Shown: one piece after another, positions 57,610-62,600 of the stretch
How positions within the stretch are numbered: the first letter of the stretch is position 1
Layout: every line of letters starts with the position of its first letter
DNA from: Alphaproteobacteria bacterium
GTDB lineage: Bacteria > Pseudomonadota > Alphaproteobacteria > Caulobacterales > Maricaulaceae
Reading direction: 5' to 3'
Length of the DNA stretch: 64,000 nucleotides
Assembly: GCA_016124675.1 (NCBI GenBank)
Contig: WGNG01000015.1
Coordinates: 1 to 64,000, forward strand
The notes under the pieces: generated by a model
Seen by the model: only the letters and a program-made list of their open reading frames with translations
Told to the model about the DNA's origin: nothing
The model's database searches: none
Translations under genes and position numbers: made by a program

Positions 57610-58356
57610 GTGCCCGTCAATCCCGTTCGCCATGCCCGCCATATCCTGCTGAGGGAGATTGGCGGCCCGGGCCAGCAGCGCCTGGCGCGCGCGCGCGTGA
57701 CGATCATCGGCGCGGGCGGGCTGGGCGCCCCGGCGGCGCTGTATCTGGCGGCGGCGGGCGTGGGCGCGATCCGCATCGCCGATCCCGACCGGGTGAGCCT
57801 GGACAATCTGCAGCGCCAGATCCTCTACCGCACGCAGGATGTCGGCCGGCTGAAGGCTGAGCGCGCGGCGGAAGCCTTGTCCGCCCTCGATCCCTCGCTT
57901 GAGATCGACGCGCGCGCCGTCACGGCCGGCGAGGGCGCCCTGCCGGGCCTGCTGGCGGGCAGCGATCTGGTGCTCGACGGCTGCGATGATTTCGCCACGC
58001 GCTTCGCCGTCAACCGCGCCGCCATCGCCGCGCGCATCCCGCTGGTGTCGGGCGCGGTAGGGCGCTGGGAGGGGCAGGCGGGCGTGTTCGCGCCGCATCT
58101 GGCCCCGGCTGCTCCGTGTTATCAATGCCTTGTGCCTCAAAGCCCGCCAGACGCCGAAACCTGCGCCACGACCGGCATTGTCGGCGCCCTCACCGGGATC
58201 ATCGGCTCGGTGATGGCGCTCGAAGCCATCAAGCTCATCACCGGCGCAGGCGAGCCGCTGCTCGGCCGCCTGCTCATTCATGACGGCCTGTCAGGGCGCG
58301 CCCGCACCGTGCGCCTGCACCGCGACCCGGCCTGCAAGGCGTGCGGGGCGGGGTGA
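57610..58356 (+). CDS. ThiF/MoeB/HesA-family adenylating protein
   Basis: A 248-residue E1-like enzyme that adenylates the C terminus of a sulfur-carrier protein (MoaD, ThiS or relatives). Motifs: GAGGLGAPAALYLAAAG (nucleotide loop, near residue 35), DNLQRQILYRTQDVGRLKAE, DGCDDFATRFAVN, and two CxxC pairs (CYQC, CKAC) for zinc. There is no rhodanese domain. The start is GTG behind GGAG; the nearby ATG is out of frame. No moa or thi genes adjoin, so MoeB versus ThiF cannot be decided. Confidence 0.9.
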   Translation: MPVNPVRHARHILLREIGGPGQQRLARARVTIIGAGGLGAPAALYLAAAGVGAIRIADPDRVSLDNLQRQILYRTQDVGRLKAERAAEALSALDPSLEIDARAVTAGEGALPGLLAGSDLVLDGCDDFATRFAVNRAAIAARIPLVSGAVGRWEGQAGVFAPHLAPAAPCYQCLVPQSPPDAETCATTGIVGALTGIIGSVMALEAIKLITGAGEPLLGRLLIHDGLSGRARTVRLHRDPACKACGAG

Positions 58357-58813: not shown

Positions 58814-59725
58814 TCACTCGTTGTCGTCCAGCCCCGCAGCCGCGAGCGTGGCGCGGGCGGCGTCGAGATGGAGCCGTTCGGCCATCACGCCATTGACCGC
58901 GATCGCACCGCGCTGCGCATGGGCGGGATCGGCGAAGGCGGCGACAATGGCGCGCGCCTGGGCGATTTCGCCGTCGTCCGGCCTGAACGCCGCGTGGCAC
59001 GGCGCGATCTGGGCGGGATGGATCAGGGTCTTGCCGTCAAAGCCCAGCGTGCGCGCCTCGCGCGCCTCGCCGGCAAACCCCGCTTCGTCGGTGTGGGCGT
59101 TGTAGACGCCGTCAAGCACCCCCAGATCCGCCGCCCGCGCCGCCAGGACGAGGCGGGCCAGATGCGGCGTCAGCGCCGCGCGCCGGTGCGGCCCGTCCGG
59201 CAGGCGAAGGCCCAGCGCCAGATCATTGCCGCCGGCCACCAGCACAGCAACCCCCAGCGCCCCGGCCAGGCCCGGCGCCGTGGCCAGGTGCTCGGCCAGA
59301 AACATGCCGCGCGGGGTTTCGATCATCAGCCAGAGCGGGCCGGACCAGCCCGCGCCGGAAAGCGCCGCGCGCAAGTCGGCCAGGGCCCCGGCGTCTTCCG
59401 CCTTGGCGGCCAGCACCGCATCGGGCCGGGCGGCGGCGGCGCAGGACAGATCAAGCAGGGTCTGCGCGTCACCGGGCGCATGGATGCGCAGCACGCTGTA
59501 TCGCCCGGCGGCGCGGAATGCGGCGATGGCGTCCGGGGCGGCGGCGCGGGCGGCGGGCTTGCGGTCGGGCGCCACGGCGTCTTCGAGGTCGAGGATCAGG
59601 GCGTCCGCGCCGAGCCTGCACGCCTTGTCTATCGCGCGCGGCCGGTCGCCGGGCGTATACAGCGCCGAGCGCAAACGCCGCAGGGGCGCGCGCCGATCGC
59701 TGGAGGGTGACGGCTCGCCAGTCAT
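58814..59725 (-). CDS. HpcH/HpaI (citrate lyase beta-like) CoA-ester lyase
   Basis: A 303-residue member of the CitE-like family, which cleaves or condenses CoA esters such as malyl-CoA or citramalyl-CoA. Motifs: LRSALYTPGDRPRAIDKACR, GADALILDLEDAVAPDRKP (metal and CoA site), WLMIETPRGMF with the catalytic Glu, and FDGKTLIHPAQIA. Stand-alone with arsC behind it; no citrate lyase alpha/gamma genes are nearby, pointing to a malyl-type rather than citrate enzyme. The start MTGEPSPSSD is used; the longer open frame has no conserved residues. Confidence 0.85.
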   Translation of the reverse strand: MTGEPSPSSDRRAPLRRLRSALYTPGDRPRAIDKACRLGADALILDLEDAVAPDRKPAARAAAPDAIAAFRAAGRYSVLRIHAPGDAQTLLDLSCAAAARPDAVLAAKAEDAGALADLRAALSGAGWSGPLWLMIETPRGMFLAEHLATAPGLAGALGVAVLVAGGNDLALGLRLPDGPHRRAALTPHLARLVLAARAADLGVLDGVYNAHTDEAGFAGEAREARTLGFDGKTLIHPAQIAPCHAAFRPDDGEIAQARAIVAAFADPAHAQRGAIAVNGVMAERLHLDAARATLAAAGLDDNE

Positions 59726-59749
59726 GGATACAAGGCTTACAAGACCCGC

Positions 59750-61396
59750 ATGACCCGCGCCAGCCGCCCGCCTCAGCCCGCCACCGCCGCGCCCGCTGAC
59801 GGACCCGTGATCGTCATCAGCTCCCAGCTCGCCGGCAGCGCCGTGGGCGGGACGCTGGGCGTTCGCGTGCTCCATGCCGCGGGGATCGAAACCTGTCTGG
59901 CCCCCACGGTGTGTTTCGGCCGTCATCCGGGCCTTGGCCCCACGGGCGGGGCGGCGCTGGCCGACGCGGATTTTGACAGCCTGCTCGAAGCGCTCGCCGC
60001 CACTGGCGCGCCCGGCGCGGCCCGCGCCATCCTGACCGGATACATGGCGAGCCCCGGACAGGCCACGGCGGCGGCGCGCTTCATTCAGGCTGCACGGAAG
60101 GTCAATCCCGGGCTTCTGGTCATGGTCGATCCGATTCTCGGCGACGGCGCTGCGGACGCGAGCGATGGCGGGCTCTACGTGCCGCGCGCCACCGCCATGG
60201 GGATCGCGGCGCGCCTTGTCCCGCTCGCCGACGTGATCACGCCCAATCTGTTCGAGCTTGCCTGGCTGTCCCGGCGCGCGATTCAGAGCGCGCAGGACGC
60301 TGAAGCGGCCGCGCGCGCGCTGGCGCCGGCGTCGCTGGTCACATCCTCCCCGGCGGCGGGTGACCGGCTGGGCGTTCTGGTGCTGGACGGCGCCGGACCG
60401 CCCCTGACGCTGGAAACCGCCCGCCTCGGCGCGGGCGGGCGCACGCCCAACGGGACGGGCGATCTGTTCGCGGCCAGCGCGCTGGCGGCGCGCCTCACGG
60501 GCGCCAGCTGGGCGGACGCCGCCCGCGCCGGCGCCGCACGGGTCAGCCATGTGCTCTCCCGCACCCCGGCCGGCGCGGCGGCGCTGGCGATCTCGCAAGC
60601 CGCGCTCACAGACCCGGCGGCGTTCGCGCCTGCTGCGCCATTGATCGCGCCGGCCACTGCAGCGGCGGGCCGGACCGGCGCGCGCCGGCCGGCCTGGGCG
60701 CTGGGGCTTGACGGCTGCCGGGGCGGCTGGGCCGGGGTGATGGCCGATCTCAATAGTATCGAGCCGCCGCGCGTGGCGCTGTTCGCCCGCTTTGCCGACG
60801 CGCTCGACACCGGCGCCCAGATCATCGCCGTCGACATGCCCATCGGCCTGCCCGAGCGCCCCGGACCCGATGGCCGGGGCGGGCGCGCCTGCGAACAGGC
60901 GGCCCGGACGATGCTGGGCGCGCGGCGCAGCTCCATCTTCCCCGCGCCGCTGCGCGCCGCCTTTGAAGGCCGCACCCGCGCCGAGGCCGACGCCCTCAGC
61001 CGGGCGGCGGGGGGCGCGGGCGTCGCAGCCCAGTCCTTTGCCCTGTTTGCGAAAATCCGTGAGATCGACGCGGCGATGACCGGGATGCTGGAAGGGTGCG
61101 TGTTCGAGACCCATCCTGAAACCATTATCGCGGCGCTCACCGGCGCGCCCGCCCTGCATGGCAAGAAAACGCCCGAGGGCCGGGCGGAGCGGCTCGCCCT
61201 ACTGGCCGCCAGCGGCCTCGCGCCGGACCTGTTCGAGCCGCACCCGTTCAGCAGGAGCCTCGCCGCCCCGGACGATCTCATTGACGCGGGCCTGTGCCTT
61301 CTCACCGCCCGGCGCATCGCGGCAGGGTCGGCGGTCTGCCTGCCGCAGGACCCGCCGCGCGACGCGCGGGGCCTGCGCATGGCGATCTGGGCGTAG
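59750..61396 (+). CDS. Fusion protein: pyridoxal-kinase-like domain plus DUF429 domain
   Basis: The 548-residue protein joins two families. Residues 1 to about 300 are a ribokinase-fold, pyridoxal-kinase-like domain: VIVISSQLAGSAVGGTLGVR, MVDPILGDGA, DVITPNLFELAWLS and the ATP/anion-hole NGTGDLFAASALA. Residues about 318-548 are DUF429, a predicted RNase H-like domain: LGLDGCRGGWAGVM, VDMPIGLPERPGPDG, ARRSSIFPAPLRAAFEG, and VFETHPETI. Normal PdxY is about 287 residues and DUF429 is usually separate. The kinase pocket SSQLAGSAVGG deviates from typical pyridoxal kinase. No frameshift or stop lies at the junction. Divergent from the CoA-lyase gene by 24 bases. Confidence 0.85.
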   Translation: MTRASRPPQPATAAPADGPVIVISSQLAGSAVGGTLGVRVLHAAGIETCLAPTVCFGRHPGLGPTGGAALADADFDSLLEALAATGAPGAARAILTGYMASPGQATAAARFIQAARKVNPGLLVMVDPILGDGAADASDGGLYVPRATAMGIAARLVPLADVITPNLFELAWLSRRAIQSAQDAEAAARALAPASLVTSSPAAGDRLGVLVLDGAGPPLTLETARLGAGGRTPNGTGDLFAASALAARLTGASWADAARAGAARVSHVLSRTPAGAAALAISQAALTDPAAFAPAAPLIAPATAAAGRTGARRPAWALGLDGCRGGWAGVMADLNSIEPPRVALFARFADALDTGAQIIAVDMPIGLPERPGPDGRGGRACEQAARTMLGARRSSIFPAPLRAAFEGRTRAEADALSRAAGGAGVAAQSFALFAKIREIDAAMTGMLEGCVFETHPETIIAALTGAPALHGKKTPEGRAERLALLAASGLAPDLFEPHPFSRSLAAPDDLIDAGLCLLTARRIAAGSAVCLPQDPPRDARGLRMAIWA

Positions 61397-61460: not shown

Positions 61461-62600
61461 ATGAGCATCGACATCCATGGCGTGCTGGCGCCCGGCTTCG
61501 AGCCGGTGCGGGCAGTGTTTGAAGAGAATTTCGCCGCGCGCGGCGAGCTGGGCGCGGCGTTCGCGCTGATCCGCCAGGGCGAGGTCCTGTGTAATCTGCA
61601 CGCCGGCTGGGCCGACCGGGCGCGCACCCGGCCGTGGACGGATGAGACCCTGGTTCCGGTTTTTTCCAGCGGCAAGGCGGTCACCGCGCTGGTCATGGCC
61701 TGGCTCGTGGATCAGGGCCGTCTAGACTATGACGCGCCGGTGAGCGCGCTGTGGCCTGAGTTCGCCGCCCACGGCAAGGGCGAGGTCACCCTGGCGCAGG
61801 CGCTGTCCCATCAGGCGGGCGTGCCCGGGCCGGTGAACGGGATTGACCCTGCCGACTGGTTCGACCGTGACAGGATGGAGGCCTATTTCGCCGCCATGGC
61901 GCCGATGTGGGCGCCGGGAGACGGGTCGGGCTATCACCCCTTGAGCTTTGGCGTTCTGGCCGACGCCATCGCGCGGCGCGCCGACGTGGAACATCGTTCT
62001 GTCGGCGCGATCCTGCGCGAATTGATCGCCGGTCCGCGCGGGATTGACTGCCATATCGGCCTGCCAGAGGACCAGCACCACCGCGCCGCCGAGCATATCC
62101 TGCCGCCGCGCGCGCCAGACCTCGGGACGATCACGCCGGAAACCCGGGCCGCCTTCCTCAATCCCGGCGCTTCGCCCGGGCGCAAGGGCGCCGCCGCGTG
62201 GCGCAGCGCCGAGCTGCCCGCCGCCAACGCCCACGCCACCGCCCTTGCGCTCGCCCGGCTGATGGCGCCCTTCGCCTGCGAGGGCAGGCTCGATGGCGAG
62301 GCCTTCCTCGGCGCGGCCACGCTCGCCGCCGCCATGAAGCCGCGCACCGCGGGCCCTGACCGGGTCCTGCCGTTTGACCTGAGCTTCGCAGCGGGCGTGA
62401 TGATCAATCGCCGCCTCGGGGTCTTCGGCCCGGAACCGCGCGCGGTCGGCCATTACGGCTTTGGCGGCAGCTGCGTGTTTGCCGATCCGGTGCGCGGCGT
62501 GTCGGGCGCCTATGTGATGAACCGCCAGATGGACGTGCTCGTCGGCGACGCCCGCGCCCAGGCGCTGATCGATGCGGCATACGGGTGTCTGGGGCGTTGA
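61461..62600 (+). CDS. Serine hydrolase (class C beta-lactamase/EstB family)
   Basis: A 379-residue cytoplasmic or surface esterase of the penicillin-binding-protein fold. The SxxK motif is SSGK in VPVFSSGKAVTALVMAWL (Ser near residue 70), with LAQALSHQAGVPGP following and the third-motif-like HYGFGGSCVFADP near the C terminus. No signal peptide is seen. Typical of EstB-type carboxylesterases. The function with respect to neighbouring genes is not evident. Confidence 0.88.
   Translation: MSIDIHGVLAPGFEPVRAVFEENFAARGELGAAFALIRQGEVLCNLHAGWADRARTRPWTDETLVPVFSSGKAVTALVMAWLVDQGRLDYDAPVSALWPEFAAHGKGEVTLAQALSHQAGVPGPVNGIDPADWFDRDRMEAYFAAMAPMWAPGDGSGYHPLSFGVLADAIARRADVEHRSVGAILRELIAGPRGIDCHIGLPEDQHHRAAEHILPPRAPDLGTITPETRAAFLNPGASPGRKGAAAWRSAELPAANAHATALALARLMAPFACEGRLDGEAFLGAATLAAAMKPRTAGPDRVLPFDLSFAAGVMINRRLGVFGPEPRAVGHYGFGGSCVFADPVRGVSGAYVMNRQMDVLVGDARAQALIDAAYGCLGR

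What the first reader, a model, noticed from the sequence alone, without database searches (positions are those of the whole stretch)
59750..61396. Fusion of a pyridoxal-kinase-like domain with DUF429 (predicted RNase H-like)
One open frame joins a ribokinase-fold kinase and a DUF429 domain that are normally separate. Fusions often mark functional links, so this may connect a vitamin B6-type kinase with DUF429, whose activity is unknown. The altered substrate loop (SSQLAGSAVGG) suggests a non-standard substrate.
Basis: partly seen in the sequence, partly recalled or inferred. Interest (0 to 1): 0.7.

Follow-up and report, generated by a model that had tools for sequence, protein, structure and literature searches.

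The report
Vitamin-B6 kinase fused to RuvC-like DUF429
One bacterial gene joins a vitamin-B6 kinase to a nuclease-like domain of poorly known function, and the same two genes sit side by side or fused in many alphaproteobacteria, so the fusion is real, old and testable, though why the two are linked is still unknown.

Summary
The fusion is real. Window 59750-61396 (+) is one 548-aa frame: a pyridoxal-kinase-type domain (residues 20-278) and a DUF429 domain (316-548). It is not an assembly error: the same single frame occurs in 24 of 119 genomes of the relatives draw, own included. Both halves are under purifying selection. Of the 80 best loci elsewhere, 23 are fused, 43 are adjacent same-strand genes and 14 show DUF429 without the kinase (one a contig-edge cut). 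In 30 of 43 adjacent pairs a possible start overlaps the kinase stop by 4 or 8 nt. The fused state needs 6 changes on a DUF429 tree. The kinase keeps its catalytic residues; its 'altered loop' also occurs in unfused relatives, so it is no evidence for a new substrate. DUF429 models as a RuvC-like nuclease fold with an intact acidic site. Its activity is not wholly unknown: the DUF429 domain of Mycobacterium smegmatis RelZ is reported as an RNase HII, and DUF429 with a 'phosphomethylpyrimidine kinase' domain was noted in print in 2011. Most likely this is a bifunctional protein, B6 kinase plus metal-dependent nuclease on a flexible linker, derived from an old pdxK-DUF429 operon. DUF429 also occurs at the same locus without the kinase, so the link is not obligatory.

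The parts
59750..61396 (+). fused pyridoxal-kinase-like / DUF429 gene, 548 aa
59807..60583 (+). pyridoxal-kinase-type domain, residues 20-278 (ribokinase fold; DP..GD 127-132, TPN..E 164-169, GTGD 235-238)
60584..60694 (+). linker, residues 279-315; residues 297-306 have pLDDT under 50
60695..61393 (+). DUF429 domain, residues 316-548, RuvC-like fold, acids D321, D362, D508, D509, D512 plus E453, H455, E457, K472, R481
58814..59725 (-). divergent HpcH/HpaI (CitE-like) lyase, a conserved neighbour
61461..62600 (+). beta-lactamase-family gene downstream on the same strand; homologue downstream in 11 of the 80 loci

Best explanation
The gene encodes a bifunctional protein. The N-terminal domain is a working pyridoxal/pyridoxine-type kinase (ATP-dependent B6 salvage) and the only kinase of this type that the searches found in the genome. 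The C-terminal DUF429 domain is a RuvC-like, metal-dependent nuclease acting on structured nucleic acid, possibly RNA:DNA hybrids. The two are joined by a flexible linker and probably act independently. The fusion is a derived form of an old alphaproteobacterial gene pair, pdxK then DUF429, often with overlapping stop and start codons; its selected benefit is most likely co-expression in fixed ratio. Shown: architecture, conservation, recurrence of the fused state, kept active-site residues, predicted fold. Inferred: kinase substrate, nuclease activity, independence of the domains, direction from pair to fusion, co-expression as the reason.
For: Catalytic motifs kept in the kinase; the first 36 structure matches are pyridoxal/pyridoxamine kinases. 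The own genome has pdxJ and pdxH over their cut-offs and a strong Phos_pyr_kin match that is presumably thiD; the fused gene is the only match of its own protein at E 1e-5. DUF429 model pLDDT 96.6; the 17 best solved structures by VIA-align 2 are RuvC, MOC1 and poxvirus resolvases, Z 8.9 to 7.6. D321, D362, D509 and D512 are kept in 106, 109, 108 and 107 of 110 DUF429 rows, and only two positions have different favourites (each in 70% or more) between kinase-linked and unlinked DUF429, so the linked domain looks neither decayed nor re-tooled. Of 80 loci, 23 fused and 43 adjacent; 30 of the 43 have a possible start overlapping the kinase stop by 4 or 8 nt. Fused state: 6 changes on the tree, at least 5 forced by starred branches. 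Low-confidence linker, pTM 0.74. DUF429 of RelZ reported as RNase HII (PMC4429107, PMC7591505, passages).
Against: No activity was measured. Foldseek alone gives no significant PDB match for DUF429 (best E 0.05), and a profile search finds no solved relative. RelZ is reported to lose both activities when its two domains are separated (PMC7591505), which speaks for coupling rather than independence. DUF429 also sits next to other enzymes, and 25 of 29 class-draw and 16 of 26 phylum-draw loci checked have no kinase beside it, so the kinase is not its fixed partner. Kinase-linked DUF429 domains are less basic (median net charge 0 fused, 2 adjacent, 7 alone), not what one expects of a strong nucleic-acid binder. 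The kinase is under the equivalog cut-offs.
Confidence: 0.5

Rival explanations
1. No functional link: an old operon of housekeeping genes with overlapping ends, in which fusion and fission happen by small frame changes and are nearly neutral.
For: 30 of 43 adjacent pairs have a possible start overlapping the kinase stop by 4 or 8 nt, so fusion is a short step. A divergent CitE-like lyase upstream (33 of the 80 loci) and a carbonic anhydrase downstream (12 of 80) are also conserved, and in L153, L165, L207 and L209 the lyase lies directly upstream of a DUF429 that has no kinase. Linker sequence and length differ among fused groups.
Against: The pair is kept in 66 of 80 loci while flanking genes change; all 28 genomes of the window's family with a strong DUF429 match (E under 1e-30) have the kinase fused (24), adjacent (2) or on broken contigs (2). 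The 80 loci were ranked with a two-domain query, so 66 of 80 overstates the rate.
Confidence: 0.27
2. The domains are interdependent: one regulates the other, as reported for RelZ, tying B6 status to nucleic-acid processing.
For: Recurrent fused state; RelZ domains reported inactive apart (PMC7591505, passage).
Against: Low-confidence linker and pTM 0.74 give no sign of a fixed interface; kinases and DUF429 domains exist apart with the same active-site residues.
Confidence: 0.12
3. DUF429 acts on a small phosphorylated molecule, for example a B6 phosphate or a nucleotide, rather than on nucleic acid.
For: Partners noted in print for DUF429 (Nudix, alarmone synthetase, kinase) all handle phosphorylated small molecules (PMC3153485, PMC3985635, passages). 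Many near-invariant polar residues beyond the RuvC-type acids (E453, H455, E457, K472, R481). Low net charge when linked.
Against: RuvC-like predicted fold and acid set; hardly any difference between kinase-linked and unlinked DUF429, so no sign of B6-specific tuning.
Confidence: 0.1
4. Assembly or sequencing artefact joining two genes.
For: Two relatives carry the genes as two overlapping frames (G027, G041).
Against: Same single frame in 24 of 119 genomes, including one-contig genomes G010, G011, G012, G028, G068.
Confidence: 0.01

Closest known systems
Pyridoxal/pyridoxine kinases PdxK (E. coli 2ddm, Salmonella 5zwb) and PdxY
   Same: Predicted fold (TM 0.84-0.92 over the target for E. coli and Salmonella PdxK, 28-30% identity), catalytic motifs DP..GD, TPN..E and GTGD, substrate-loop Ser.
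   Different: Below both NCBIfam equivalog cut-offs; VGN is VGG, S-N after the second strand is G-R, and the residue before GTGD is N where E. coli PdxK has K; carries DUF429.
RelZ / MS_RHII-RSD of M. smegmatis (DUF429 + alarmone synthetase)
   Same: DUF429 in one chain with an enzyme that uses ATP (PMC7591505, PMC4429107, PMC3153485, passages; the use of ATP is recalled).
   Different: Partner is a (p)ppGpp synthetase and DUF429 is N-terminal; here DUF429 is C-terminal and the partner is a B6-type kinase. The RelZ sequence was not compared here.
RuvC-family Holliday junction resolvases (RuvC, MOC1, poxvirus resolvase)
   Same: Predicted fold, Z up to 8.9 over 143 residues at 15% identity; acids on strand 1, just after strand 4 and in the last long helix.
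   Different: Long helical insert between strands 4 and 5 with extra near-invariant E, H, K and R; no sequence match found; junction cutting not tested.
DUF429 with a 'phosphomethylpyrimidine kinase' domain, mentioned in Atkinson et al. 2011 (PMC3153485, passage)
   Same: Probably this very Pfam architecture (PF08543 + PF04250).
   Different: Described there as a thiamine-pathway kinase in a handful of bacteria; here it is of pyridoxal-kinase type and belongs to a widespread gene pair.

Membership tests
Pyridoxal kinase (PdxK/PdxY) | Ribokinase-type fold with pyridoxal kinases as nearest structures | tested here: met
   first 36 rows are pyridoxal/pyridoxamine kinases; E 3.2e-19 for 5zwb_B. 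On a predicted model.
Pyridoxal kinase (PdxK/PdxY) | Catalytic GTGD, TPN..E and DP..GD motifs | tested here: met
   D127, P128, G131, D132, N166, E169, G235, G237, D238 kept in all 20 rows of the window's clade and in the E. coli and human enzymes.
Pyridoxal kinase (PdxK/PdxY) | Score over the NCBIfam equivalog cut-off | tested here: not met
   PdxY 140.3 against 292, PdxK 137.7 against 342, TIGR00687 85.9 against 144.5. Filed as pyridoxal-kinase-like, not as PdxK or PdxY.
Pyridoxal kinase (PdxK/PdxY) | ATP-dependent phosphorylation of B6 vitamers | not testable with these tools
   Needs an assay.
DUF429 (PF04250) | Score over the Pfam gathering cut-off over the whole domain | tested here: met
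   178 bits against 23, profile positions 1-213 of 214.
RuvC-like branch of the RNase H superfamily | Fold of five-stranded sheet with helices as in RuvC | tested here: met
   top 17 rows are RuvC-type resolvases, Z 8.9-7.6, rmsd 3.3-4.1; on a predicted model, near the Z of 8 below which the tool warns, and Foldseek alone is not significant.
RuvC-like branch of the RNase H superfamily | Acids on strand 1, at strand 4 and in the C-terminal helix | tested here: met
   D321 (106/110), D362 (109/110), D508 (104/110), D509 (108/110), D512 (107/110). Their distances in space were not measured.
RuvC-like branch of the RNase H superfamily | Metal-dependent nuclease activity | not testable with these tools
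   In the passages seen, reported for the DUF429 domain of RelZ only (PMC7591505, PMC4429107).
RelZ-type DUF429 fusion | Alarmone synthetase (RelA_SpoT) domain | tested here: not met
   One search lists only DUF429, Phos_pyr_kin and PfkB at E up to 1.

The most novel reading that the evidence does not exclude
The protein couples vitamin B6 activation to a RuvC-like nuclease in one chain, with one activity gating the other, so that PLP supply or B6 status controls processing of R-loops or branched nucleic acid in alphaproteobacteria.
Probability: 0.1. Interest if true: 0.75.

Novelty: new variant of a known kind. Interest (0 to 1): 0.42.

Why it matters
DUF429 is a widespread domain, with matches in 49 of 385 genomes of the class draw, and the passages I saw name one experimentally studied DUF429 protein, RelZ. 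A conserved pdxK-DUF429 pair with a recurrent fused state, in cultured organisms such as Roseibium, Stappia, Kaistia, Pseudovibrio and Oceanicaulis, gives a concrete place to ask what DUF429 does and whether it needs its partner. It also warns against reading the fusion as proof of a B6-specific role, because DUF429 is found at the same locus without the kinase.

Tried and rejected
Non-standard kinase substrate from the loop: rejected as evidence, since unfused relatives share the loop. Assembly error: rejected. Defence role: PADLOC gave only a candidate model at E 0.0036 over part of DUF429, not pursued. Kinase remnants before the solitary DUF429 of L164 and L165: none seen. Nudix partner near solitary DUF429: 2 of 68 neighbouring frames match Nudix, but a motif scan did not place them. 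Separate active sites for linked and unlinked DUF429: only positions 382 and 424 have different favourites. Solved DUF429 structure by profile: one chance hit at E 1. Viral fold library: best match E 0.007, RuvC-type. Plasmid collection: 25 records match, none covering 80% of the query in one place. Literature: 'DUF429' 14 papers by word start, some of them on DUF4297 by title; 'COG2410/COG4923/PF04250' 2; 'MS_RHII-RSD + RNase HII' 15; 'pyridoxal kinase + RNase H + fusion' 5, none relevant by title; 'RuvC + DUF429' 1; 'predicted nuclease + RNAse H fold + pyridoxal' 0. A pdxK-DUF429 operon was not seen in those listings; of four papers (PMC3985635, PMC4429107, PMC3153485, PMC7591505) passages were seen, of the others only the listing.

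Rows left out: A1 took 24 rows; of the fused loci then held, L004, L017, L021 and L067 were not used. A3 took 20 of the 23 fused loci. A4 took 68 of 86 neighbour frames. Class and phylum draws: only loci returned by the tool, with about 1500 bases on each side, were checked for a neighbouring kinase: 29 of the 51 matches listed beside the window's own in the class draw and 26 newly fetched ones of 49 matches in the phylum draw. L096 was first labelled 'alone' although its contig begins inside the kinase; it was relabelled for the second count. In one search the own genome shows a second weak match to the fused profile whose place was not listed.

Full report
Observation. The frame at 59750-61396 (+) exists as described: 548 aa from ATG to stop. 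Pfam finds DUF429 at residues 319-536 (E 2.8e-52) and Phos_pyr_kin at 93-270. NCBIfam places the first 280 residues nearest PdxY and PdxK, below both equivalog cut-offs, and the best PDB sequence hits are pyridoxal kinases. dN/dS to six relatives is 0.21-0.44 in the kinase half and 0.17-0.36 in the DUF429 half, rough values because synonymous sites are far diverged. Both halves are coding domains under purifying selection.

Not an artefact. In 119 genomes of the relatives draw the protein matches 75. From the table, with the frames checked, 24 genomes (own included) carry kinase and DUF429 in one frame, among them the one-contig genomes G010, G011, G012, G028 and G068. Two (G027, G041) have two overlapping frames, and G013 and G016 are broken at contig ends. 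DUF429 is found in 33 of 119: these 28, one solitary strong match in another family (G106) and four weak ones (G003, G024, G030, G097). Other relatives have the kinase and no DUF429 match (for example G020, G036, G063), so the kinase does not need DUF429.

Wider distribution. A scan of one genome per species with the alignment of fused proteins gave the 80 best of 556 related stretches, itself a capped list. Classified with HMMs of the two halves: 23 fused, 43 adjacent on the same strand with the kinase first, 14 DUF429 without the kinase, of which L096 is only a contig cut. The ranking favours loci with both halves. Less biased figures: in the class draw, 3 fused and 1 adjacent of 29 DUF429 loci checked besides the window; in the phylum draw, 10 adjacent of 26 new loci, 9 of the 10 from one family (f177); none of the five loci checked from outside the class had the kinase. 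In 30 of 43 adjacent pairs a possible DUF429 start overlaps the kinase stop by 4 or 8 nt, which suggests translational coupling (inferred).

History. On a quick tree of 110 DUF429 domains, with L096 relabelled, the fused state needs 6 changes, 5 forced by starred branches. Fused groups outside the Maricaulaceae and Robiginitomaculum rows are f8 (three genomes, the only ones searched of that order), L110 with L118, L108 with L112, and the single rows L120 and L121, of which L120 falls beside the Maricaulaceae. Their linkers differ in length and sequence. Gains and losses cannot be told apart, and support values are those of a quick search.

Neighbourhood. A divergent HpcH/HpaI (CitE-like) lyase lies upstream in the window and in 33 of the 80 loci: 19 fused, 12 adjacent, 2 with DUF429 alone; a recheck by domain position puts it upstream on the opposite strand in all 33. 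A beta-carbonic anhydrase lies downstream in 12 of 80 and in several draw loci. In L153, L165, L207 and L209 the lyase lies 79-103 bases upstream of DUF429 with no kinase between, so the kinase was lost there or was never inserted, and DUF429 is kept without it. In L152 and L168 DUF429 follows a gene with POR and DUF6537 domains.

Kinase. The catalytic residues are conserved, the loop Ser (S25, human Ser12 by my count) is kept, and H59 is His in human and Thr in E. coli PdxK. VGG in place of VGN is shared with the three unfused kinases examined, L029-L031, and G stands there in 19 of 43 adjacent kinases. The full-length model (pLDDT 93.0, pTM 0.74) has the fold of PdxK. The genome has pdxJ and pdxH and a strong Phos_pyr_kin match that is presumably thiD; the fused gene is the only match of its own protein at E 1e-5, so its likely role is B6 salvage (inferred).

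DUF429. Modelled alone it has pLDDT 96.6 and pTM 0.93. VIA-align 2 ranks RuvC, MOC1 and poxvirus resolvases in the first 17 rows, Z 8.9 to 7.6; Foldseek alone is not significant. This agrees with PMC3985635 (passages, the abstract's among them), which places DUF429 in clade D with RuvC. The acids D321, D362, D508, D509 and D512 and further E453, H455, E457, K472 and R481 are kept in at least 104 of 110 rows, and only two positions have different favourites between kinase-linked and unlinked domains. The linked domain is therefore probably active and does what other DUF429 domains do (inferred). For RelZ of M. smegmatis, RNase HII activity on RNA:DNA hybrids and R-loops is reported (PMC7591505, PMC4429107, passages); the original paper is not held, and no RelZ sequence was compared here.

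Verdict. A real, old and recurrent fusion of two known families, most likely a bifunctional protein with independent activities. That DUF429 co-occurs with a kinase of this Pfam family was mentioned in 2011 (PMC3153485, passage). What is added here is the pyridoxal-kinase type, the widespread and often overlapping gene pair, the recurrent fused state, the conserved neighbourhood and the kept RuvC-like acid set. The reason for the link remains open.

Noticed in passing
window 58814-59725 (-): CitE-like HpcH/HpaI lyase divergent from the fused gene; the same arrangement recurs in 33 of 80 related loci, in Maricaulaceae, Robiginitomaculaceae and several Hyphomicrobiales.
   Followed up: partly
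window 58814-61159 (-): A 781-aa antisense open frame runs in phase with the lyase gene across most of the fused gene; only the lyase part matches Pfam.
   Followed up: partly
L152 2188-5742 and L168 2430-5984: DUF429 follows directly a gene with POR and DUF6537 domains (indolepyruvate ferredoxin oxidoreductase-like, name recalled), another neighbour for DUF429.
   Followed up: no
L111-L114, L117, L123, L142, L144, L147 and phylum-draw loci: Carbonic anhydrase gene (Pro_CA in the two tested, L112 and L113) downstream of the pdxK-DUF429 pair, and of solitary DUF429 in L069, L206, L207, L210, L221.
   Followed up: partly
window residue 234 of the protein: Asn stands where E. coli PdxK has Lys just before GTGD; PDB titles report pyridoxal bound to Lys233 in Salmonella PdxK. 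That it is the same position is my inference.
   Followed up: no
DUF429 domains of 110 loci: Median net charge falls from 7 (alone) to 2 (adjacent) to 0 (fused); could be lineage composition.
   Followed up: no
window 57610-58356 (+): ThiF-family gene upstream; no homologue found in the other loci scanned.
   Followed up: no
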